From Glycomyces amatae (GTDB lineage: Bacteria; Actinomycetota; Actinomycetes; Mycobacteriales; Micromonosporaceae): a DNA stretch of 64,000 nt. The notes beneath the pieces are model-generated. The model was not told the origin of the DNA. It ran no database searches and saw nothing but the letters and a program-made list of their open reading frames with translations. The position numbers and the translations under genes are program-made. Positions 8,905-54,723 of the stretch are shown here, in pieces; the first letter of the stretch is position 1; each line of letters opens with the position of its first letter. The stretch covers positions 1 through 64,000 of the forward strand of contig NZ_JAJLQZ010000019.1 of the NCBI RefSeq assembly GCF_020991375.1, in the 5' to 3' direction.

Positions 8905-9366
8905 TCAGAAGTCGCCGAAGGCGACCTGGTAGACGAGGAGACCGAGTGTGCGCCACCGGTCGACGACGCGGTCGCGGTCGTCGAGGACGAGAACGACGGT
9001 GTACTGCGGTTCGATGTGCTCTCGGTAGAAGCCTTCTTTGAGGTCGCCGTCGTGCTGGCTGTCGCCGACGGCCCGCATGTGGAGCGCGGCGTAGTCGACG
9101 TCGAGGTGCTGCTTCAGCCACGTCTCAGTGTCAGCGCGGCAGGCGTCGGTGCGGCCAGAAGTGATGACGATCTGGAGGCCTTGCGCGGCGAGGGCACGCA
9201 CGTTACTGATGACAAGTTCGTGCGGTTCGTCAGTGATGACTCGGGACTCGTCGTAGGGGCTGCGGTGCGCATGGAGGGCGAGGGTGCCGTCAATGTCGAC
9301 GATAACGGCCCGTGGTTTCACGGGGGATGCGGCGGCGGTCATATCGCTCCAGTTCAGTTGCGTCAT
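8905..9366 (-). CDS. Polynucleotide 3'-phosphatase, T4 Pnkp phosphatase-domain (HAD) type
   Basis: HAD-superfamily motifs are clear: AVIVDIDGTLA (motif I, DxDGT), IVITSGR (motif II), a Lys in DGDLKEGFY, and VLDDRDRVVDRWRTLGL (motif IV). The closing YQVAFGDF matches the end of the T4 Pnkp phosphatase domain. It would remove 3'-phosphates at nicks or cleaved RNA ends. Start is ATG 9366 (153 aa); ATG 9342 with GGAG four bases upstream is an alternative. The frame is open upstream to 9774 but has no coding character there. It is the first gene of a minus-strand cassette with the kinase and methyltransferase. Confidence 0.88.
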   Translation of the reverse strand: MTQLNWSDMTAAASPVKPRAVIVDIDGTLALHAHRSPYDESRVITDEPHELVISNVRALAAQGLQIVITSGRTDACRADTETWLKQHLDVDYAALHMRAVGDSQHDGDLKEGFYREHIEPQYTVVLVLDDRDRVVDRWRTLGLLVYQVAFGDF

Positions 9367-9374
9367 GTTCTGTC

Positions 9375-9389
9375 CATTATGACATAATG
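9375..9389. promoter_or_regulatory. Perfect 15-base palindrome, probable operator/promoter
   Basis: CATTATGACATAATG is a perfect palindrome around one central base, eight bases upstream of the phosphatase ATG. It is AT-rich in a GC-rich region and contains CATAAT, which resembles a -10 box on the minus strand. It sits in the divergent gap to the plus-strand operon at 9511. Confidence 0.5.
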
Positions 9390-9510
9390 AAGTAACGCTC
9401 AAAATAACGAAACACCATGGTGTGCAATAGCTCTCGATACCAACTGCAGCGGTCGAGCTGCTGTTCGACGCACCAACGGCCATCGAGTCCACTCCAGGTT
9501 CAGGAGGACA

Positions 9511-9753
9511 ATGCACCACTGGTTCGACGTGCTCGCTCTCGCGCTCACGCTCGGGGCCGGCGCTGCCGCCATCCCGGTCACCACAGCTGCATCCCGGTGC
9601 GCAGCGGTCCTGGGCCGCACGGTTCGCAAGGCGACCCATCAACGCTCGCACCATCTGGCCATGGGCAGCAGGGCACGCACAAGTCAAGCCGCGCACGACA
9701 TCCCGTTTGCGGCACCGCAGGAACGCCCTCACACAAACCGGAAGCAGTCGTGA
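9511..9753 (+). CDS. Small membrane protein, 80 aa
   Basis: The ATG follows a near-ideal AGGAGGACA ribosome-binding site. One N-terminal membrane segment (FDVLALALTLGAGAAAIPV) is followed by a basic, hydrophilic tail. No family is recognised. The stop codon overlaps the GTG of the next gene, so it starts a three- to four-gene operon that includes DUF6221. Confidence 0.7.
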   Translation: MHHWFDVLALALTLGAGAAAIPVTTAASRCAAVLGRTVRKATHQRSHHLAMGSRARTSQAAHDIPFAAPQERPHTNRKQS

Positions 9754-9992
9754 ACAGGCATGCATTCGCTGCACGCATTTCGAACCACTGGCTCGTACGT
9801 GCGGCGTTCCGCTGTAGCCGCCCTCGCGCCCGGCCCCTGGGACAGGGAGCGTCTCCCGCCATAGCCGCTATCGGGGTTGCGTGCCTGCCGGTCGCAGTCC
9901 TCGGGTTGAGCACTGTACTCGCGCGCATGGTCCGTGCGGAAGTCGACGGCACTCACGAGACTTCCGGATTCACCGCCGTGATGGAAGGATAA
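9750..9992 (+). CDS. Small membrane protein, 80 aa
   Basis: GTG 9750 overlaps the TGA of the preceding gene. The protein has an Arg/His-rich N-terminus and one membrane segment (SPAIAAIGVACLPVAVLGLSTVLA, about residues 36-59). It ends four bases before the DUF6221 start. The frame is open far upstream, but coupling to the previous gene decides the start. Function unknown. Confidence 0.6.
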   Translation: MNRHAFAARISNHWLVRAAFRCSRPRARPLGQGASPAIAAIGVACLPVAVLGLSTVLARMVRAEVDGTHETSGFTAVMEG

Positions 9993-10721: not shown

Positions 10722-11546
10722 CTAGTTGCGTCGGTTCCGGGGCCGACTCGCCCCGCCCTCGTTCCGGTTGAGCGACCGCCACACGTCATCGAACAGCGGG
10801 CGGTGCTGCTCCTGGTATTGCGCGACCTTGACCATGTGCCTGTCCACGAGGTCTTCGATCTGCGGCGGGTTGGTCCCGTACACGTCGATGTACTTCGCCT
10901 TCAGGCGCTTCCCGAAGACGCCACGCACCTTCTTCACCTCAGCGGACTTGAGGTTGAGACCATCGAGGTAGATCGACACCGTCAGCGGCTTGATCCGCTC
11001 GTCGTACTCCGGGCTCTCGCCCAGCACGCGCCCGGTCAGCTGCCGCGCTTTAGTGTCCCAGAACCCGGCGTCGCCGATGCCCGCCTGGGCGAACACGGCG
11101 ATGACCTTCGCGGCCTGCTCCACGGACACCCGGGGGTTGATGGCGATCCCTTGAGTCCAGTAGTCCCGGAGGGCCTTGGCGCTCTCGCGCTGGTAGGCGA
11201 TCACGAGCGAACGGGCAGCGAGGCTGACCTTGTTCTCGTCGATGTTCGCCAGGAGCATCGACCAGGTTTCGAGGTCGATGGTGACCATCATGTAGGTCTT
11301 GCCGTCAGTTCCAGTTGTGGGCGTCTCGCCCATAACTGCCCAGGACCTCGACTTGAGCTTCCGGAGCTGCGTCGAGTAGTCCAGCCCCATCGCCTCGATG
11401 GTCGGCTTGAGGACGATGGCGGGCTCGCCGTCGATCCCCAGGGTGGTGTGAATGACGCGTCCGTGAAAGGGCACGTGAACGATGTCGCTCGGCGTGTTAA
11501 AGCCCCCTTGGGGGTTCCCGCCTGCGGAAACGGTGATAGAGTTCAA
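10722..11546 (-). CDS. Phage antirepressor N-terminal (P22_AR_N) domain protein
   Basis: The segment VPFHGRVIHTTLGIDGEP, LKPTIEAMGLDYSTQLRKLKSRSW, MVTIDLETWSMLLANIDENKV and YQRESAKALRDYW is the P22_AR_N domain of phage antirepressors. The C-terminal part is helical and ends basic (GGASRPRNRRN). TTG 11546 is preferred because GGAG lies five bases upstream; an in-frame ATG exists at 11627 without a ribosome-binding site. Such proteins counter phage repressors, or act as DNA-binding proteins in prophages and plasmids. No repressor partner is adjacent. Confidence 0.85.
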   Translation of the reverse strand: MNSITVSAGGNPQGGFNTPSDIVHVPFHGRVIHTTLGIDGEPAIVLKPTIEAMGLDYSTQLRKLKSRSWAVMGETPTTGTDGKTYMMVTIDLETWSMLLANIDENKVSLAARSLVIAYQRESAKALRDYWTQGIAINPRVSVEQAAKVIAVFAQAGIGDAGFWDTKARQLTGRVLGESPEYDERIKPLTVSIYLDGLNLKSAEVKKVRGVFGKRLKAKYIDVYGTNPPQIEDLVDRHMVKVAQYQEQHRPLFDDVWRSLNRNEGGASRPRNRRN

Positions 11547-11629
11547 CTCATCTCCATGATTTAGATATGACCTTAAGCGGAGATTTCTGCCCGGCGTCGA
11601 GTTGCCGCTCGCGTCGGGCTTCTCCATGT

Positions 11630-39926: not shown

Positions 39927-40641
39927 TCGGCCTCCTGGTTCCCGTTCGCTGCTATCGTCACTGAGACTGACGCTACAGGCACGGCGCCGTACCCGATGAC
40001 GTACACCGCCGTCGTGACACCTGCACGGCATGGGGCCAGTGCGGCTCACTTCGTGACGCTTGCTTCGGCCGTGCCGTGAGGAGCGATGGGGCAGGAGAAA
40101 TGCTCGATCTGGTAGTGCCCACGGGTATGCCGTCGTCACGGCGAACTTTGCACCGTGGGAGTGCCGTGATCGTTCACCGCGTGAACATGCCGTCCGTGCG
40201 ATGGTCGCTGGAAGGCGGGGGACGTCAGCAGCCATGGTTGTTCACGCGATGAACAACCGGGCGCCATTCGCGCATGCCATCACCCGTCTCCAGGGTGCAC
40301 CGTCTAGGCTCGGAGCAGCCACATGGAGGCAGTCCGCCAATGCTGCCGCCAACGGGAGCGTTCGCGGAGAGCTGCGCATACGCCGCTGGCGTGTTGTTCA
40401 CGCGGTGAACAACCACAGGTGCGACCCGTGTACGCCGACGCGAAGCCGCGCGTTCACCCCGTGAACAACAGCGACACCCAGCAGCTTTCGAAATACCCGA
40501 AATATGGCCTCTTGTGTAACGCCGCCAACGGGAAAGAGCCCTACAACTCAAAAAATACGCGTGTCAGGGGTGTGCGTGCTTTCCGCCGATGGTTATGCTC
40601 GACCTCGTGACCACGTCCCAACCTGTGAAGGTGCATCAGCC

Positions 40642-41454
40642 ATGACCGTCCCTCTCCGCCAGCAATGGATGATCCGACACGGCATCGCCCCCTCCGACCT
40701 CGCCGGGAAGATCTTCACCGTTGCCGCCTACAAGGGAGGCGTGGGCAAGACCTTCCTCGCCACCGAACTCGCGTACCTCCTCGGCGCGATCCTCATCGAC
40801 TTCGAATGGGATGAAGGCTCCGCGTCCATCGCCTTGGGCTACCACCCTGAGGACCGGCAGCGGTCCATCATCATCGACGCGATCAACAACGAGCGCACCC
40901 CCCGTCCCATCTGGGCCGGTGACCATGAGCAACCCGGACGGCCCGCGCTCATCCCCGGACACTCCGACTTCGAAGACCGCCAGCCTTCCGCGGCCGCGAC
41001 CGCGAAGCTCCTCAACGCGTGGGCCGCCGAACTCGGTACCAAGTACGGCCGCCCCATCGTCCTCGACACCCACCCCGGCGGGTCCCCCTCCACCTTGGGA
41101 GCGATCAGCGCCGCGAACCTCACGATCATCCCGACCGTGTTCAAAGAACGCGAAATGCAAGCGCTCGAAGGCATGCTGAAAGAAGTCGGCGACTACCCGC
41201 TCCTCATGGTCCCCAACATGACCTCGGCCTCCCCGCCCGACCGGTTCCTCACCTGGGCCGTCCGCCTCTCCGAGACCTACCAGGTCCCGATCGCTGACGA
41301 CTTCATCCGCAACTACGCGTGGCTGCCCAGCCGCGCCCTGCGCATGGTCAACAGCTCGGTCGACCACGCCCCCGTGAAGAAAGCCGCCCCGCTCGTCGCA
41401 TCGTTGAACACCATCGCCAAGGAGGTCGCCGTCCGGTGTCTGGCAACGCAGTAG
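40642..41454 (+). CDS. parA: ParA-type partition ATPase
   Basis: The 270-aa protein has a deviant Walker A box (YKGGVGKTFLATELAYLL, residues about 28-45), IDFEWDEGSASIALGY as the Walker A' region, and IVLDTHPGGS as Walker B. This is a ParA/Soj-type ATPase that moves ParB-bound DNA. ATG 40642 has GAAGG upstream. Four parS-like sites lie within 470 bases before the gene and ParB overlaps its 3' end. Confidence 0.92.
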   Translation: MTVPLRQQWMIRHGIAPSDLAGKIFTVAAYKGGVGKTFLATELAYLLGAILIDFEWDEGSASIALGYHPEDRQRSIIIDAINNERTPRPIWAGDHEQPGRPALIPGHSDFEDRQPSAAATAKLLNAWAAELGTKYGRPIVLDTHPGGSPSTLGAISAANLTIIPTVFKEREMQALEGMLKEVGDYPLLMVPNMTSASPPDRFLTWAVRLSETYQVPIADDFIRNYAWLPSRALRMVNSSVDHAPVKKAAPLVASLNTIAKEVAVRCLATQ

Positions 41455-42719
41455 AGAAACTGAAAGCGAAAAAGGAAGCGGCGAAGCGCGGTCGGGGAGC
41501 GCCACCGCCGGCACACCCGAAACCGCCCATGGACCTGGGCGTCAGTGACAGCGGCGGCGGCACGGTGCCGCCCGCGGACGTCCCTGACGGACCCGGCGAG
41601 TACGGGGCACTGCCGATCAAGAAAGTCGCCGCGAACCCGCGAAACCCACGGAAGGTCTTCCGCGGCCTGGACGGCCTGGCGAACTCGATCCGCACCGACG
41701 GGCAACTGCAACCGGTCACCGTCGTCACCCGCGCCGCGTATCTCGCGCTGTTCCCCGACGATGCGGCCGCCATCGCGAAAGCCGAATGGGTGGCGTGCAT
41801 GGGGTCGCGTCGCATCAACGCCATCCAGCAAGCACCCGACCTCACCACCGTGAACGCGGTCGTGGACGACCGGTTGGCCGAGTCCGCGCTCAGGTTCCAC
41901 AAAGCGGCCGTCGAGGAGAACCAGAACCGCGCGGACCTGACGCCCATGGAAGAAGGCCGGGCGTTCATCGAGATCGCCGACGTTATTGGCTACGGCGGGC
42001 AAACCAAAGTCGCCGAGATGTTCATCTTGTCCAAAGCGTACGTGTCGCAGCGGATCAAGTTGCTGAAACTCATCGACCCCATGCAGGCGATCCTGGACCG
42101 CTCGGACTACAAAGAGCTCGTGCCGCTGTCGACCGCGGTCACGCTCGCGCAGCTCGACGCTGCCGAGCAGGAAACGGTGGCGAAGCCGATCCTGGCGCTC
42201 CCCGCCGAGGAGCAGTACGCGGCATGGAAAATGTGGGCGGCGTCGTCGCGAGACGCGTCCACGGTCGCACCAGCGCCGGCAGCGCCTGAACCTGTTCACG
42301 ACGTGAACAACATTGAGCCCGCTCGTTCAGCACCGGCCGCACCCGCAGCGCCCGAACCCACACCGGCAACGCCCAGCGCCGACGGCGCAACGCCACCCGA
42401 GGTGTCGGCCGCGCCCGTTCCTGCGGCCGCCGAGCCGCCAGCGGCACACGCACCAGCTGCTGGCCTGGCTGTTCCCTCGGCACCGCCGCGCCGTACCGCC
42501 GAGGACACCGCTGCGGCACCGGTCCCGAATGTGCCCGAGCAAACCACACCAGTGGCAGCGGCGCCCTCGGCGAAGGACGACACTGCCGTGCGCGCTGCCG
42601 TGTCGGTGCTGAAACGGTACGACGCGGAGACGATCGCGACCATGCTCATCGCCGAATGCGACCCTGATGACGTCTCACGGCTCGCTGAGGTCCTGTACGA
42701 ACGCGTCAGCGCCGCTTAG
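41436..42719 (+). CDS. parB: ParB-type partition protein
   Basis: ParB/Srx-fold motifs are NPRNPRKVF (about residues 67-75), LANSIRTDGQLQPVTV and GSRRINAIQQ (the ParB box), followed by a helix-turn-helix (TKVAEMFILSKAYVSQRIKLLKL). A long Pro/Ala linker (about 275-390) and a short C-terminal helix, probably for dimerisation, complete the 427 aa. GTG 41436 has AAGGAGG upstream and overlaps parA by 19 bases. A parS-like site (42294-42308) lies inside the gene. It should bind the GTTCAC-NNN-GTGAAC sites. Confidence 0.92.
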   Translation: MSGNAVEKLKAKKEAAKRGRGAPPPAHPKPPMDLGVSDSGGGTVPPADVPDGPGEYGALPIKKVAANPRNPRKVFRGLDGLANSIRTDGQLQPVTVVTRAAYLALFPDDAAAIAKAEWVACMGSRRINAIQQAPDLTTVNAVVDDRLAESALRFHKAAVEENQNRADLTPMEEGRAFIEIADVIGYGGQTKVAEMFILSKAYVSQRIKLLKLIDPMQAILDRSDYKELVPLSTAVTLAQLDAAEQETVAKPILALPAEEQYAAWKMWAASSRDASTVAPAPAAPEPVHDVNNIEPARSAPAAPAAPEPTPATPSADGATPPEVSAAPVPAAAEPPAAHAPAAGLAVPSAPPRRTAEDTAAAPVPNVPEQTTPVAAAPSAKDDTAVRAAVSVLKRYDAETIATMLIAECDPDDVSRLAEVLYERVSAA

Positions 42720-49980: not shown

Positions 49981-51924
49981 ATGGCAGCGCCCGCCACCGA
50001 CACCACCACCTCCAGTCCCGAACCGGTCACGATGATCGCCGCCGTCGTCCTCAACGACCTCCCCGCCCACCTCACCCGCACCTGGGAATACCGCATCCCC
50101 GCCGCACTCACCGCCGACGTCCGCATCGGCTGCCGCATCAAAGCCCACCTCGCCCGACGCTCCCGCACCGGCTACGTCACCGCCCTCCGGCCCGCCACAC
50201 CCAACGACACTGCCCTCAAAACCCTCACCGGACTCATCTCGGCGCAACCGGTCCTCACCGCCGAAACCCTCCACCTCACCAAAGCCATCGCCGACCGGTA
50301 CGCCGGCACCCACGCCGACGTCCTGCGCCTGGCCGTCCCCGAACGCCGCGCCAGCGCCGAACACCAACCCGCAACAACACCGCTACCCATCACCGCGCCG
50401 CCCCTCGACGCCTGGGCCCCCTACACGCACGGCACCGCCTACCTCCGCGCCCTCCACACCGGCAAACAGGCCCGCGCCGTATGGAACACCCGGCCCGGCG
50501 AGGACTGGGCCACCCGCCTCGCCGAAGCCGCCGCCGCTACTGCCGCCGGCGGCCGCAGCGCCGTCCTCATCGTCCCTGACCAAATCCACCTCGAGCTCCT
50601 CGACACCGCCCTCACGACACTGCTCGGCCCCGGTCGCCACGTCACCCTCACTGCCAACATGGGCGCCACCCCCCGCTACCGCGCCTACCTCCAGGCCCTC
50701 CGCGGCGACGTCCGCATCGTCGCCGGCACCCGCAGCGCCGCCTACACTCCCGTCACCAACCTCGGCCTCGTCGCCATCTGGGACGACGGCCACCCCGCCC
50801 ACGTCGAACAGCGCGCCCCCTACCCGCACGCCCGCGACGTCATCCTCACCCGCGCCCACCACACCGGCGCCGCCGTCCTCATCGCCGGCAACGCCCGCAC
50901 CCCCCAGGCGCAACTCCTCGTCGACACCGACTGGGCCGCCTCCCTCACCCCCACCAAACAAGGACGGCACGAACTGCGGGTCCTGGCGACCGGCACCGAA
51001 ACCCACCTCGCCAGCGACGGCACGAACGCCCGCATCCCCACGTTCGCATGGAAAGCCGCCAAAGCCGCCCTCGCAAACGACCACAACGTCCTCGTCCAAG
51101 TACCCCGCGCCGGCTACCTGCCCGCACTCGCCTGCCAGCAATGCCGCACCCGCGCCACCTGCCCCCAATGCGGCGCCACCCTCGCCCGCACCGGACCGCA
51201 CTCGCCACCCACCTGTACCCGATGCCAGCACACCGTCGACGACAGCCGATGCGGCACCTGCGGCTCCCGGCACATCACCGCCCGCGCCATCGGCACCGAA
51301 CGCACCGCATGGGAACTCACCCAAAGCTTCCCCAGCACCACCGTCACCGAGTCCACCGGCGCCCACCGCTTGCACACAGCCCCTGCCGGGCCCGCCATCG
51401 TCGTCGCCACCCCCGGCGCTGAACCGCCCACCGCCGGCGGCTACGGCGCAGTCCTCCTCCTGGACACCTGGACCCTCCTCACCCGGCCCGAGTGGAACGC
51501 CAGCGAAGAGGCCGTCCGCTACTGGATGAACGCTGCCGCGCTCGCCGCCCCGGACGGCACCGTAGCCGTCGTCGCCGACCACGCCCTCCCGCAAGTCCAA
51601 GCGCTCCTGCGATGGGACGCGACCTGGTTCGCCGCACGGGAACTGACCGACCGTGCCGCACTCGGATTCCCTCCGCTGAAGCGGTTCGCGGCGATCACCG
51701 GCCCGGCCGGTGCACCCGAGCAGGCCGCCACCGCCCTACCGTCGAGCCTGAACGCCGAGCACTTCGGCCCCTTCCCTGTCGACGACGACACCGAACAGAT
51801 CCTGGTGCGCGTCGACCGCCAGCACGCTGCCAAGCTGGCACGGGAACTGTCGGCACTGCGGATCCAACGCCAGCTCGACCCCGGCCACCTCCAAGTCCGG
51901 ATCGACCCGCTGACCATCGCCTAG
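49981..51924 (+). CDS. priA: PriA-like primosomal protein N', actinobacterial (non-helicase) type
   Basis: The 647-aa protein has the PriA N-terminal DNA-binding domain (VVLNDLPAHLTRTWEYRIPAAL, RIGCRIKAHLARRSRTGYV), then the helicase-like core with GGRSAVLIVPDQ, VRIVAGTRSAAYTPVTNLGLVAIWDDGHPAHVEQRAPYPHARDV. It lacks a proper Walker A GKT and reads WDDG where DEAH/DEEH is expected, as in actinobacterial PriA. Four CxxC-type pairs (about 393-445) would bind two zinc ions. It should help load the replisome. A PriA gene outside the chromosomal core and next to iteron-like repeats points to plasmid replication. Confidence 0.88.
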   Translation: MAAPATDTTTSSPEPVTMIAAVVLNDLPAHLTRTWEYRIPAALTADVRIGCRIKAHLARRSRTGYVTALRPATPNDTALKTLTGLISAQPVLTAETLHLTKAIADRYAGTHADVLRLAVPERRASAEHQPATTPLPITAPPLDAWAPYTHGTAYLRALHTGKQARAVWNTRPGEDWATRLAEAAAATAAGGRSAVLIVPDQIHLELLDTALTTLLGPGRHVTLTANMGATPRYRAYLQALRGDVRIVAGTRSAAYTPVTNLGLVAIWDDGHPAHVEQRAPYPHARDVILTRAHHTGAAVLIAGNARTPQAQLLVDTDWAASLTPTKQGRHELRVLATGTETHLASDGTNARIPTFAWKAAKAALANDHNVLVQVPRAGYLPALACQQCRTRATCPQCGATLARTGPHSPPTCTRCQHTVDDSRCGTCGSRHITARAIGTERTAWELTQSFPSTTVTESTGAHRLHTAPAGPAIVVATPGAEPPTAGGYGAVLLLDTWTLLTRPEWNASEEAVRYWMNAAALAAPDGTVAVVADHALPQVQALLRWDATWFAARELTDRAALGFPPLKRFAAITGPAGAPEQAATALPSSLNAEHFGPFPVDDDTEQILVRVDRQHAAKLARELSALRIQRQLDPGHLQVRIDPLTIA

Positions 51925-52490
51925 ACCTCCTGGCCTTGCAACAGCGTGCCATGGGCCGCTGAACGCCCCGCTCACGATCGCCATCGGCAACATCGAAGAG
52001 GGACAGGGGCCACGGCAGTTTCGTATGCGAGGAGGCTCGCTAGGGCCCGCAAACACCAATGCCGCCAGCGGCAGTGACGCTCGGTCTTCGCGTCAGTCGC
52101 GCCCGGGCCTGGCCGCTGTGGCAGCACTGGGCCATTCCGCGGCCCGGCCGCTTCGCCTCCGTTGCCGACATGCCCCTTGACCTGCAAACTTCCTGCTCAA
52201 GCCGGGCTGCACCATCGCTTCGCGCGCGGTCGGTGGCCCGGGACGGTGGCCCGGGAGGTCACCCCTACCACCGAACAGGTCAGGAAACACAGGTGCAGCA
52301 CTCCACACCGATACCCGCCTACCTGAGGACGGACACCGACCGAAACCTACACAGGTTCACATTGCCGTGGTTCCGTGCAGCGATTCACTGCCGAAGATCA
52401 GATGCAACGGTTCAAAGGCGAAGGTTCCCTGCATGCGTTCCGATCGGGCAGGTTCAACTGCAGAGGTTAGATGTAGAGGTTCTAGCGGAA

Positions 52491-52790
52491 GAATCTTCCG
52501 GACCCGCCCGGAAACCTTTACCGGACCTGCCCGGAAAACACTTCCGGACCCCACCGGAAGCCGCTTCCGCACCCTCCGGAAAAACCTGCCGGACCCCGCC
52601 GGAAAAATTTGCCGGACAGGTCCGGAAGTATTTACCGGACCCTCCGGAAACCACTTCCGGACGGGTCCGGAAAATTTTGCCGAAGGGTCCGGAAGTGGTT
52701 TCCGGACCCTCCGGCAGTATTTTCCGGACCTCTACCTCCGGAAAAATCTTCCGCACCCCCACCGGAAAACTCTTCCGGACCCCTAACCAG
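52491..52790. repeat. Iteron-like direct repeats, probable origin
   Basis: About 13 imperfect tandem units of 22-23 bases. Each contains TTCCGGACC or a variant followed by CCGGAAA, for example at 52496, 52517, 52540 and on to about 52790. Spacing of two helical turns is typical of iterons bound by an initiator. Just before them (about 52345-52486) GGTTC boxes recur irregularly. The array lies directly downstream of the initiator-like gene. Confidence 0.75.
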
Positions 52791-52795
52791 CGCAA

Positions 52796-52833
52796 ACGTC
52801 AGGGCCCGGGTCAACAGACCCGGGCCCTGACGT
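52796..52833. terminator. Strong hairpin between initiator-like gene and iterons
   Basis: ACGTCAGGGCCCGGGTC paired with GACCCGGGCCCTGACGT, a perfect 17-base stem closed by AACA. It overlaps the last codons of the initiator-like gene and separates it from the iterons. Confidence 0.88.
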
Positions 52834-53530
52834 GCCGATGCCGTAACTTCTTGCTGTGCTGGTTCCTCGGCGCCTCAGTCGACAGCTCCGTCTCCTTCGG
52901 CAGGTCCCGAATACTCAACTCCATCGCAAACGCACGCTCACGCACCTCAACCACCCGCCGCAGGAGCGCCGGCCGGTCCTCCAACACGTCATCAAGCCAC
53001 CCGTCGACGTTGAGCACATACACGCACCCTGAGGGCTCCTTGCCCCGCCACAGGTACAGCACGCCGACCACGTGCTTGTCCTCAAGATCGCGAAGCGCCG
53101 TCCGCACCGACCGGCTCGTCGAGCACACATCCGCCGCCAACCGCTCCTGTCCCGGCCAGCACACCAGCGTCTCGTCAAGGCGCAGCGCCAACGCCATCGC
53201 CACGGCGACCGCTGTCGTGGCCCGCGGCCAGTCGACGGCGTCCCGAGCCCACTCGACCGCGCCCAAGCGGGAGGGCACCCGCTCACCGCTGCCGTAGGTG
53301 AGGGACTTCTTCTCACCGTCATAGGTGCGACTCGGACGCGAGGGCCGCGACCCGGTCCCCTTCTTGGCTTTACTGGAGCGAGCTGGCGCGGACTTCTTAG
53401 CCGCAGGCGCTACCGCGGCCTTGGAGGCGGCATCGGCCGCGCGGGCGCTTGCCGTGGGTGGGAACAGCTCCTCACGGAAGAACGCGGTGTCCAGCAGCGT
53501 GTCGCCACTGGTTTCGGTCGTGTCGGTCAT
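52811..53530 (-). CDS. Replication-initiator-like wHTH protein, 239 aa
   Basis: ATG 53530 has GGAGAAAG upstream. The N-terminal 75 residues are acidic, then Ala/Lys-rich and probably flexible. The middle holds a winged helix-turn-helix (RLAADVCSTSRSVRTALRDLEDKHVVGVLYLWRG). The C-terminus is basic and helical. Evidence that it is an initiator is positional: iteron-like repeats follow its 3' end, and an antisense-type control region precedes it, as in IncFII/IncI replicons where Rep acts in cis. By sequence alone it could be an ordinary transcription factor. Confidence 0.65.
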   Translation of the reverse strand: MTDTTETSGDTLLDTAFFREELFPPTASARAADAASKAAVAPAAKKSAPARSSKAKKGTGSRPSRPSRTYDGEKKSLTYGSGERVPSRLGAVEWARDAVDWPRATTAVAVAMALALRLDETLVCWPGQERLAADVCSTSRSVRTALRDLEDKHVVGVLYLWRGKEPSGCVYVLNVDGWLDDVLEDRPALLRRVVEVRERAFAMELSIRDLPKETELSTEAPRNQHSKKLRHRHVRARVC

Positions 53531-54312
53531 GGCTTTCTCCACATCGGTTGACGCGGAAGTTGCCGACCCTGTAGCATGGCGACTCGAACGTAACGGAGTT
53601 CGCGGATGCTCGGTCCGCAACTTCACTCCGAGGGCCGGTGTTGACGCACCGGCCCTCAGTGCTTTCTTGGGCAGTTGCAGTCCACGCGCCCGCGAGACGG
53701 CCGCAGTCGGCCTCTCCATGCGCAGCGTGAACTGGGAACAGACGCCAGGAACAAACCATGTTCGACCCGGCGGGGCTTTGAGCAGCGCAGACGCTGCACA
53801 TGCCCTGGTCAGCGCTGCACCACATCGGGGAGCGATAACTTTGACCAGGGAAAACAACCTCAGGACCGCATATCGTGGCTGATCGTGAGGTACGCGACAG
53901 GGAGTGAACTGTCAGGTTGGATCGACGCGGCAGGGCAGCGTCATGTACTCTGGCAGACACAAGACCTCCCTTCGCGGGGGTTGAACAACCTTCTTGCGAA
54001 GGATCTCGAAGAATCGAGCGAGGAACGGCCGCCAAACCAGCCTCGCTCTTTTCTTTTGCTCTCGGTTAGGTGATCATACACAGTACCCTGCCAGTCAAGG
54101 TCCCTGTGTCCGATTCTGAAGGCCGTACGCATCTGCCCGTTCCTGCAAGGAATCCCAGCGTGCAGCCGGGGAACACCCGCCGTTGACGGCGCTGCACCGG
54201 CCGGGGCGAGGCCCCGGCCCGGCCGTGCACGAAGGCCCGAGTTCGACTGCCGCATCGAAAACCTGGGGATGGAAGTGCTCACGTGGGCAGCGTCGTGTAC
54301 GCTGACAGACAA
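53472..54312 (-). promoter_or_regulatory. Leader region with two overlapping leader ORFs upstream of the initiator-like gene
   Basis: Two similar starts on the minus strand: AGGAGG then TTG 54312 (frame to 53941) and GGGAGG then GTG 53960 (frame to 53472). Both begin SxxVHDAA. The first frame stops 20 bases inside the second, and the second stops 58 bases inside the initiator-like gene, an arrangement suited to translational coupling. TATGAT (54073-54078) lies upstream of the left unit and TAAGAT at the matching place of the right unit (about 54413-54418); both could be -10 boxes. The encoded sequences look unlike normal proteins, so they may be leader peptides only. Confidence 0.5.
53957..54057 (+). 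ncRNA. Candidate antisense RNA, left module
   Basis: TACTCT (53946-53951) could be a -10 box. The transcript would end in a perfect 8-base hairpin, GAGCGAGG (54016-54023) with CCTCGCTC (54041-54048), followed by TTTTCTTTT. An internal hairpin CCTTC-TTGC-GAAGG is present. It is fully complementary to the leader of the initiator-like gene, including the second leader ORF start. The hairpin loop contains CGCCAA, so the opposite (target) loop reads UUGGCG. Confidence 0.6.
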
Positions 54313-54399
54313 CAGGGACCTCCTTCCGAGGTTCGTGTTCCAATCCCGCAGGTCGACGTTCGCCAAAACAGGACGACCTAGCGGGATTAACTTTTGTCT
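54309..54399 (+). ncRNA. Candidate antisense RNA, right module
   Basis: Same layout as the left module: TACGCT (54298-54303) as possible -10, then a two-part stem, AATCCCGC/GGTCG (54342-54355) with CGACC/GCGGGATT (54374-54388), followed by a CTTTTGTCTT tract. The loop again contains CGCCAA (54361-54366). Stem sequences differ from the left module while pairing and loop are kept. Confidence 0.58.
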
Positions 54400-54723
54400 T
54401 CCTCTGGTCAGCTGATCTTACACAGCTATGATCCTTTTCCACGGGCCGAGTCCGGATTCCACGGCAGAACCTTCCGGACCCGGCCAGTTCGTGCTACCGC
54501 AACCGGTTTCGCGTCAGAGCGCTCCGCGGCATCACCTTCCGAACAGGGCTGGCACGGCGACACCGCTGCGACCGTGACCTGTGCTGCTGCCGCACTACTG
54601 TCGCGTCACGAGCTGCCTGCCACGCTTCCATACGCATGACGGGTAGCCCCGCATGCGTTCGCTGCCGCAGCCAGGTCACGTCCGCGTACTTGTCCACAGT
54701 GTCCACAGCACCCGCAACGTCAC
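54400..54723. other. Non-coding stretch
   Basis: The left end belongs to the right antisense module (CTGATCTTACACAG, matching TGATCATACACAG at 54071-54083). Beyond it I see no gene, repeat or hairpin that stands out. Confidence 0.4.

What the first reader, a model, noticed from the sequence alone, without database searches (positions are those of the whole stretch)
53935..54430. Two tandem antisense-RNA/leader modules with UUGGCG loops upstream of an initiator-like gene
Seen: two units of about 140 bases share their ends (GGGCAGCGTC-R-TGTAC on the left, TGATC-W-TACACAG on the right) and a loop containing CGCCAA on the plus strand. Their stem sequences are quite different but still pair perfectly, which is compensatory change. 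On the plus strand each hairpin is followed by a T-run (a terminator). On the minus strand each unit carries a ribosome-binding site and a conserved start SxxVHDAA. Known: IncFII and IncI/IncB replicons control Rep with an antisense RNA whose 3' hairpin is the terminator and whose target loop has a UUGGCG-type U-turn motif; Rep then acts on an origin just downstream of its gene. Inference: the same logic operates here in a high-GC actinomycete replicon, in duplicate.
Basis: partly seen in the sequence, partly recalled or inferred. Interest (0 to 1): 0.88.

Follow-up and report, generated by a model that had tools for sequence, protein, structure and literature searches.

The report
Tandem antisense-RNA control of phage-plasmid replication
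Upstream of a replication-initiator gene on a probable phage-plasmid of the soil bacterium Glycomyces lie two (perhaps three) RNA control units in a row that look built to limit copy number, with recognition loops that change fast while most of what surrounds them stays fixed.

Summary
The two units (53933-54083, 54285-54425) share both ends, carry a + strand hairpin with a GCCAAA loop and a T tail, and on the - strand an SD and a start codon. An RNA model of either unit finds the other in the window. One relative was found in the collections searched, a Glycomyces sp. YM15 contig with the same two units at the same 352-base spacing. There the initiator gene and its repeat array differ, but three leader islands are kept at 79-91% identity: unit 2, unit 1, and a third segment at the rep start with its own + strand promoter-like site and hairpin. 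Apical loops vary (7 of 11 positions each) around an invariant UUUGGC core. Two leader frames run unit 2 -> unit 1 -> rep, open and overlapping in both contigs, product not conserved. Both contigs carry phage structural genes. Best reading: a portable antisense-RNA copy-number (possibly immunity) module with coupled leader frames, duplicated, joined to swapped iteron-type initiators. No transcript was seen. New variant of a known kind; the IncI-type pseudoknot was not found.

The parts
52482..52793 (.). array of about 23-bp iteron-like repeats (CCGGAA...TTCCGG) directly behind rep; candidate origin
   Evidence: 10 copies here at spacings 22-24 with one of 94; the family's 11th member (54458-54492, 63%) lies apart and is left out (D1). 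YM15 has a different array (GGTGCAAC/TTTCACCACC) in the same place
52811..53530 (-). rep-like gene, 239 aa, ATG with SD GGAG
   Evidence: HTH_36 E 8.7e-05 (22.7 bits, below the cut-off of 25), PHROG replication initiation O-like E 4e-05; AlphaFold model too poor to use (mean pLDDT 37.6)
53537..53558 (-). hairpin that pairs the rep SD (UUCC[G/A]CGUC-AACC-GAUGUGGAG); pairing kept in YM15 by a G-U to A-U change
53548..53577 (+). promoter-like TTGACG-18-TAGCAT of candidate antisense RNA C
   Evidence: same in YM15; the 30-mer around the -10 found, at up to 3 mismatches, only in the own genome and YM15 among 354 family genomes
53583..53670 (+). candidate third antisense RNA (RNA C), approximate ends; hairpin 53630-53657 with weak T tail
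53472..53960 (-). leader frame ORF1, GTG start (ATG in YM15), 162 codons (170 in YM15), overlaps rep start by 59 bases (92 in YM15)
53933..53959 (+). unit 1 left repeat: -10-like TACTCT and CAGCGT-N5-ACTCTG dyad
53957..54062 (+). candidate antisense RNA A (unit 1), approximate ends
54016..54048 (+). unit 1 terminator/target hairpin, 8-bp stem, 17-nt loop with GCCAAA
54073..54078 (-). -10-like TATGAT of proposed sense promoter P1 (TATGCT in YM15); not listed by the promoter scan
53941..54312 (-). leader frame ORF2, TTG start, 123 codons in both contigs; overlaps the ORF1 start by 20 bases in both
54285..54311 (+). unit 2 left repeat: -10-like TACGCT and CAGCGT-N5-ACGCTG dyad
54309..54400 (+). 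candidate antisense RNA B (unit 2), approximate ends
54342..54388 (+). unit 2 terminator/target hairpin with GCCAAA loop
54415..54420 (-). -10-like TAAGAT of proposed sense promoter P2 (identical in YM15); not listed by the promoter scan
54436..54496 (-). GC-rich inverted repeat upstream of unit 2, possible terminator that insulates the leader
   Evidence: perfect arms in YM15, imperfect in the window (read); inside the conserved island

Best explanation
This is the replication-control leader of a phage-plasmid replicon. Sense transcripts from P2 and P1 (- strand) run into rep. Each unit makes a short + strand antisense RNA (A, B; perhaps also C at the rep start) that meets its own target hairpin in the leader through a loop with the invariant core UUUGGC and a fast-changing rim. 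Pairing keeps the nearby SD and start of a leader frame closed. Translation of ORF2 ends just inside ORF1, and ORF1 runs across the hairpin that hides the rep SD, so rep is translated well only when ribosomes pass. Antisense RNA dosage therefore reports copy number and shuts rep down. Rep then acts on the repeat array behind its gene. The leader is a portable module, kept while rep and iterons were exchanged. Shown by sequence: relatedness of the units, conservation islands, loop variability, open overlapping frames, predicted SD pairing. Inferred: the antisense RNAs themselves, the coupling, the copy-number role.
For: Same two units at 352-base spacing in YM15. Model of one unit finds the other in the window, E 3.5e-4 and 7.1e-5 in 84 kb. 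Islands 53511-53667 91%, 53909-54060 86%, 54285-54496 79%, against 24-52% in most spacer blocks; rep alike only over about its first 50 residues. Loop rim 7 of 11 changed against 18 of 132 elsewhere in unit 1 (P 0.0005) and 7 of 11 against 25 of 131 in unit 2 (P 0.003); core 0 of 6 in both. Consensus fold of unit 1, + strand: 42 pairs, 34 unchanged, 3 changed on one side, 5 on both (3 of these 5 inside RNA A), none broken. With the fold of one sequence mapped on the other, unit 1 on + has fewer broken pairs than chance, P 0.010 and 0.0115; unit 2 on - P 0.048 and 0.003. Frames open in both contigs; shuffles of the whole frames stay open in 27 (window ORF1), 40 (YM15 ORF1), 106 (window ORF2) and 76 (YM15 ORF2) of 2000; codon-position differences flat, 55/45/56 in 149 codons and 44/41/48 in 120, so the frame but not the product looks kept. 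Rep SD unpaired probability 0.05-0.07 (window) and 0.28-0.30 (YM15), rising to 0.64 and 0.51 when its pairing arm is occupied. Phage structural genes on both contigs.
Against: No RNA data. Only one relative, so two sequences per unit. Structure test (12 tests in all) not significant for unit 1 on - (P 0.21, 0.10), unit 2 on + (0.27, 0.54) or region C on either strand (0.10-0.26), so it does not settle which strand folds. In a genome-wide search the unit 1 model gives window unit 2 only E 0.026 and does not list YM15 unit 2. The promoter scan lists neither antisense promoter of units 1 and 2 nor P1 nor P2; its other + hit (54405-54432) is not shared by YM15. The terminator scan finds 1 site, shuffles 1.1 on average (unit loops exceed its limit). 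For the diverged middle parts alone, shuffles stay open in 1020, 801, 298 and 516 of 2000, and the other sense frames also have few stops, so the open-frame argument is moderate. SD-to-start spacing of ORF1 is short (4 nt). Occupying the anti-SD arm lowers access to the window rep AUG (0.66 to 0.21), and blocking the RNA C target leaves the window SD at 0.07, closing it only in YM15 (0.30 to 0.10). Rep is an initiator by weak profile hits in the window, stronger in YM15 (E 5.6e-11).
Confidence: 0.72

Rival explanations
1. The antisense RNAs serve phage immunity first: they silence an O-like initiator used in lytic growth, so that a resident prophage blocks relatives with matching loops, as RNA-based immunity does in phages P4 and P1 (recalled).
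For: Contigs carry terminase, portal, tape measure and tail genes; rep matches phage O-like initiators; the loop rim, the part that would set specificity, is what differs; an anti-repressor gene lies at 10722-11627.
Against: Iteron array behind rep and ParA/ParB genes in the window fit plasmid maintenance equally; one initiator may serve both, so the two readings overlap.
Confidence: 0.25
2. The conserved ends are DNA sites (operators for Rep or another repressor) and the hairpins act in the sense mRNA as attenuators; no antisense RNAs are made.
For: CAGCGT-N5-ACGCTG dyad in each left end, perfect in unit 2 of both contigs; the antisense promoters lack a clear -35; unit 2 pairing is kept better on the - strand.
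Against: T tails follow the hairpins on the + strand, where no gene with family support follows until 56582; + folds of units A and B exceed shuffles by more than - folds in both contigs (for region C the two strands are alike); a variable rim around a fixed core is not expected of an attenuator.
Confidence: 0.17
3. RNA-based replication origin, as proposed for non-RepA extrachromosomal mycobacterial prophages (PMC7157519).
For: Same setting: extrachromosomal actinophage with a non-coding RNA near the replicon (passages).
Against: A rep gene with an array of repeats stands beside it, and frames open onto rep are kept; the published case lacks repA.
Confidence: 0.04
4. Chance: palindromes and open frames of a GC-rich spacer.
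For: Single frames stay open in 1.4-5.3% of shuffles; two further exact hits of the left-end pattern lie in DNA that shows no other part of a unit (read by eye).
Against: Kept in YM15 at equal spacing with three islands in diverged surroundings.
Confidence: 0.02

Closest known systems
REx-C control modules of Pseudomonas plasmids (RepA-PFP, RepJ; PMC5304414, passages and section 6 read)
   Same: Leader with stem-loops, putative antisense RNA, leader peptide coupled to rep and the first rep codons; exchanged among unrelated rep modules; incompatibility changed by few bases in one stem-loop; leader product dispensable
   Different: One antisense RNA and one short leader frame there; here two related units and perhaps a third, two long frames in series, actinomycete phage-plasmid, iteron arrays; no direct sequence comparison was made
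IncFII (CopA/CopT-tap-repA) and I-complex (RNAI/Inc-repY-repZ) control (PMC10724649 passages read; details recalled)
   Same: Antisense hairpin against the rep leader, UUGGCG-type target loop, leader frame coupled to rep, origin behind rep
   Different: Duplicated; no CGCCAA pseudoknot partner; Rep not of those families; leader frames of 123-170 codons
pCG1-family and pGA1 plasmids of Corynebacterium (PMC13088423 passages read; pGA1 paper PMC152619 not held)
   Same: Antisense RNA controls rep and copy number in an actinomycete
   Different: One antisense RNA named in the passages read; other Rep type (recalled)
Extrachromosomal mycobacterial prophages (PMC7157519, passages read)
   Same: Actinophage maintained as plasmid, some with RepA, some with a non-coding RNA
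   Different: There the RNA stands in for repA; here RNA units precede a rep gene

Membership tests
IncFII/I-complex antisense-controlled replicon | Antisense RNA encoded opposite the rep leader, ending in a terminator hairpin | tested here: inconclusive
   Hairpins with T tails on + and conserved -10-like ends; no transcript data
IncFII/I-complex antisense-controlled replicon | UUGGCG-type loop in the target | tested here: met
   UUUGGC in 4 of 4 loops, UUGGCG in 3 of 4
IncFII/I-complex antisense-controlled replicon | Leader peptide frame overlapping rep | tested here: met
   ORF1 overlaps the rep start in both contigs; translation itself not tested
I-complex (IncB/I/K) | CGCCAA near the rep SD for a pseudoknot with the loop | tested here: not met
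   No CGCCAA on the - strand between 45765 and 58029; CGUCAA, which needs one G-U pair, lies near the SD but is listed among the best partners only for one of four loops
IncFII/I-complex | Rep of the RepA/RepZ family | tested here: not met
   Only HTH_36 and phage initiator profiles of note
Described RNA families (Rfam 15) | Match at gathering score | tested here: not met
   0 matches in 64 kb
REx-C-like exchangeable control module | Same control leader joined to unrelated rep modules | tested here: met
   Leader islands 79-91% identical; rep alike only over about the first 50 residues; repeat arrays different; one pair of contigs
REx-C-like exchangeable control module | Functional exchange and incompatibility | not testable with these tools
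   Needs bench work
Iteron replicon | Direct repeats bound by Rep next to its gene | tested here: inconclusive
   Repeats present; binding not testable
Phage-plasmid | Phage structural genes together with plasmid replication and partition genes on one extrachromosomal replicon | tested here: inconclusive
   Genes present on the window's contig; contigs of 98033 and 111304 bases show no end overlap, so circularity is unproven

The most novel reading that the evidence does not exclude
A relay: two antisense RNAs with separate specificities, and a third at the rep start, gate a chain of coupled leader frames (ORF2 to ORF1 to rep), so that a phage-plasmid needs two or three independent copy-number readings to agree before it replicates. 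The same loops set immunity and compatibility between related phage-plasmids, while the module moves between unrelated iteron initiators.
Probability: 0.3. Interest if true: 0.75.

Novelty: new variant of a known kind. Interest (0 to 1): 0.55.

Why it matters
Replicons are usually described as controlled either by iterons or by antisense RNA (so the introduction of PMC5304414). Here a duplicated antisense leader appears to sit on top of interchangeable iteron-type initiators in an actinomycete phage-plasmid. That would extend modular replicon evolution, described in Pseudomonas, to high-GC phages, and offers a way to predict from loop sequences which phage-plasmids exclude each other. In the listings of the 8 searches made of the open paper library I saw no report of tandem antisense units upstream of one rep gene; most subscription papers are not held.

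Tried and rejected
Rep relatives: none in plasmids at E 0.01 (at E 10 only 6 records with weak partial hits), phages, viral contigs, genome contigs, the 21 other genus genomes or 100 other family genomes. The collection scans use exact 8-residue patterns and reach close relatives only. YM15 Rep: none in plasmids or in 200 order genomes, a search without a positive control. Leader DNA: one 33-base hit in a Nocardia plasmid, inside the rep coding part, set aside; none for YM15; viral contigs patterns 0 of 3. Unit 1 model: 1 of 397 order genomes, its own (YM15 was evidently not drawn), 2 of 22 genus genomes. The left-end pattern at up to 3 mismatches hit 5 of 200 family genomes: own, YM15, and one 3-mismatch site each in G117, G099 and G135, not followed up. 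Of 3 exact hits in genome contigs, 2 (L010, L011) show no other part of a unit by eye. Pseudoknot with CGCCAA: rejected. Structure models of both Reps: mean pLDDT 37.6 and 47.6, not searched further; Rep sequence in the PDB: 2 hits, E 0.42 and 4, set aside. priA-like gene as a marker of sister plasmids: of 22 genus genomes only the own and YM15 have two matches. Portal protein in viral contigs: nothing.

Full report
What was checked. They share a 27-base left end at 352-base spacing and a TGTGTAWGATCA sense-strand right end. Their + strand transcripts would fold into two hairpins, the last with a T tail; folding is more stable than shuffles on + in the window and in YM15. A strict search for such a long-looped terminator returns one + strand site in 64 kb, the unit 1 hairpin, and two - strand sites elsewhere.

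Where it lies. The window is the start of a 98033-base contig of a 6.2 Mb genome. The window's contig has ParA and ParB genes, a priA-like gene besides another priA on contig C15, and beyond the window terminase (with an intein-like domain), portal, minor capsid, tape measure and tail genes. The YM15 contig has matching phage genes (portal 91%, tail 82%, terminase 72%, tape measure 64% identical; tail and tape measure families) but no ParA/ParB relative at E 1e-5. Both are probable phage-plasmids; neither contig shows overlapping ends.

The initiator. The 239-aa rep product has a weak HTH_36 match, below the curated cut-off, and weak matches to phage replication initiators. The YM15 gene in the same place matches the same kinds of family better, HTH_36 above its cut-off. 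The two proteins align only over about the first 50 residues (43% of 51), and the repeat arrays behind them differ. So the rep and iteron part has been exchanged or has diverged beyond recognition.

The leader. Against that, three leader islands are kept: 54285-54496 at 79%, 53909-54060 at 86% and 53511-53667 at 91%. Most 25-column spacer blocks lie at 24-52%; exceptions are 54106-54130 (76%) and 53884-53905 (60%). The third island reaches the first rep codons. It holds the only promoter-like site listed in both contigs (TTGACG-18-TAGCAT on +), followed by a hairpin in which a C-G pair has become U-A. It may be a third antisense RNA.

Are the two units one kind? A covariance model of unit 1 built from two sequences finds window unit 2 at E 3.5e-4 and YM15 unit 2 at 0.07 in 84 kb; the reverse gives 7.1e-5 and 0.087. 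Over whole genomes the unit 1 model lists window unit 2 at 0.026 only. Ends are alike, cores differ. They look like a duplication whose recognition parts have separated.

Structure evidence. Consensus folds show no broken pairs, but such folds are chosen for that. The fairer test, a fold of one sequence mapped on the other, gives for unit 1 on + P 0.010 and 0.0115, on - 0.21 and 0.10; for unit 2 on + 0.27 and 0.54, on - 0.048 and 0.003; region C 0.10-0.26 (12 tests). This favours structure in both units, does not settle the strand, and is silent on region C. The stronger sign is where change falls: 7 of 11 rim positions of each apical loop differ, 0 of 6 core positions, and 18 of 132 or 25 of 131 elsewhere in the unit. 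That is the pattern expected of antisense recognition loops that diverge for compatibility.

Frames. ORF2 overlaps the ORF1 start by 20 bases in both; ORF1 runs 59 or 92 bases into rep. ORF1 starts with GTG in the window and ATG in YM15, and this change is matched by a C to U change at the pairing position of the consensus sense fold. Differences are spread evenly over codon positions; third-position GC is 0.58 for the ORF1 frame and 0.70 for the ORF2 frame, against 0.76 for the rep frame (frames counted from their first start codon). So the frames seem kept for ribosome passage, not for a product. Shuffles of whole frames stay open in 1.4-5.3% of cases; shuffles of the diverged middles alone in 51%, 40%, 15% and 26%. 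The argument is moderate, and the values are not independent where sequence is shared.

Rep start. The rep SD is paired in the predicted leader and becomes freer when the pairing arm is occupied, as by an ORF1 ribosome; in the window the AUG then becomes less free. Blocking the RNA C target leaves the window SD as it was and closes the YM15 SD further.

Mechanism. Sense RNA from P2 or P1 presents target hairpins; antisense RNAs A and B bind them and block ORF1 and ORF2; without ORF1 translation the rep SD stays closed. Higher copy number means more antisense RNA and less Rep. Every RNA step is inferred.

Comparison. It works like IncFII/I-complex control and most like the exchangeable REx-C modules of Pseudomonas (PMC5304414). 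It is not a member of the I-complex type: the CGCCAA partner is absent on the sense strand near rep, no loop partner at the same place shows up in both contigs, and Rep is not of that family by profile. Antisense control of rep is known in actinomycetes (pCG1 family). What differs is duplication with separate loops, long coupled frames in series, and union with swapped iteron-type initiators in a phage-plasmid.

Limits. One relative only. Searches covered 354 family genomes with one pattern, 200 with another, 397 order genomes with the model under stricter filters, and the plasmid, phage, viral and genome collections as listed. No metagenome scan was available.

Noticed in passing
window 52220-52270: 51-base island, 92% identical in YM15 (L013 4867-4917), with GGTGGCCCGGGA twice in tandem in the window, between priA-like gene and iterons; possible origin part.
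   Followed up: partly
window 49981-51924: PriA-like primosomal protein on the phage-plasmid (62% identical to the YM15 contig copy) besides another priA on contig C15 of the same genome.
   Followed up: partly
window 53936-53952 and 54288-54304: CAGCGT-N5-ACGCTG dyad over the antisense -10 in each unit, perfect in unit 2 of both contigs, one mismatch in unit 1; possible operator.
   Followed up: no
L050:11285-13606 (G000 contig C11): Terminase large subunit with intein-like Hint domains; the YM15 match covers only query residues 2-449 of 773.
   Followed up: no
L049:17689-19947 and L050:335-7308: Three large genes with Phage_min_cap2 domains; the first also matches a PI3/PI4-kinase domain (E 9.8e-09).
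   Followed up: no
window 40504-42719: ParA/ParB pair without a relative on the YM15 contig at E 1e-5; the YM15 contig has a DNA polymerase with no match on the window's contig.
   Followed up: partly
L013 5001-5070: Second repeat type in YM15, TCAAGATCCCTATSTC and a variant, three copies beside the main array.
   Followed up: no
window 8905-9774 and 10722-11627: Protein with a PNKP-type HAD phosphatase domain and a P22-type anti-repressor gene.
   Followed up: no
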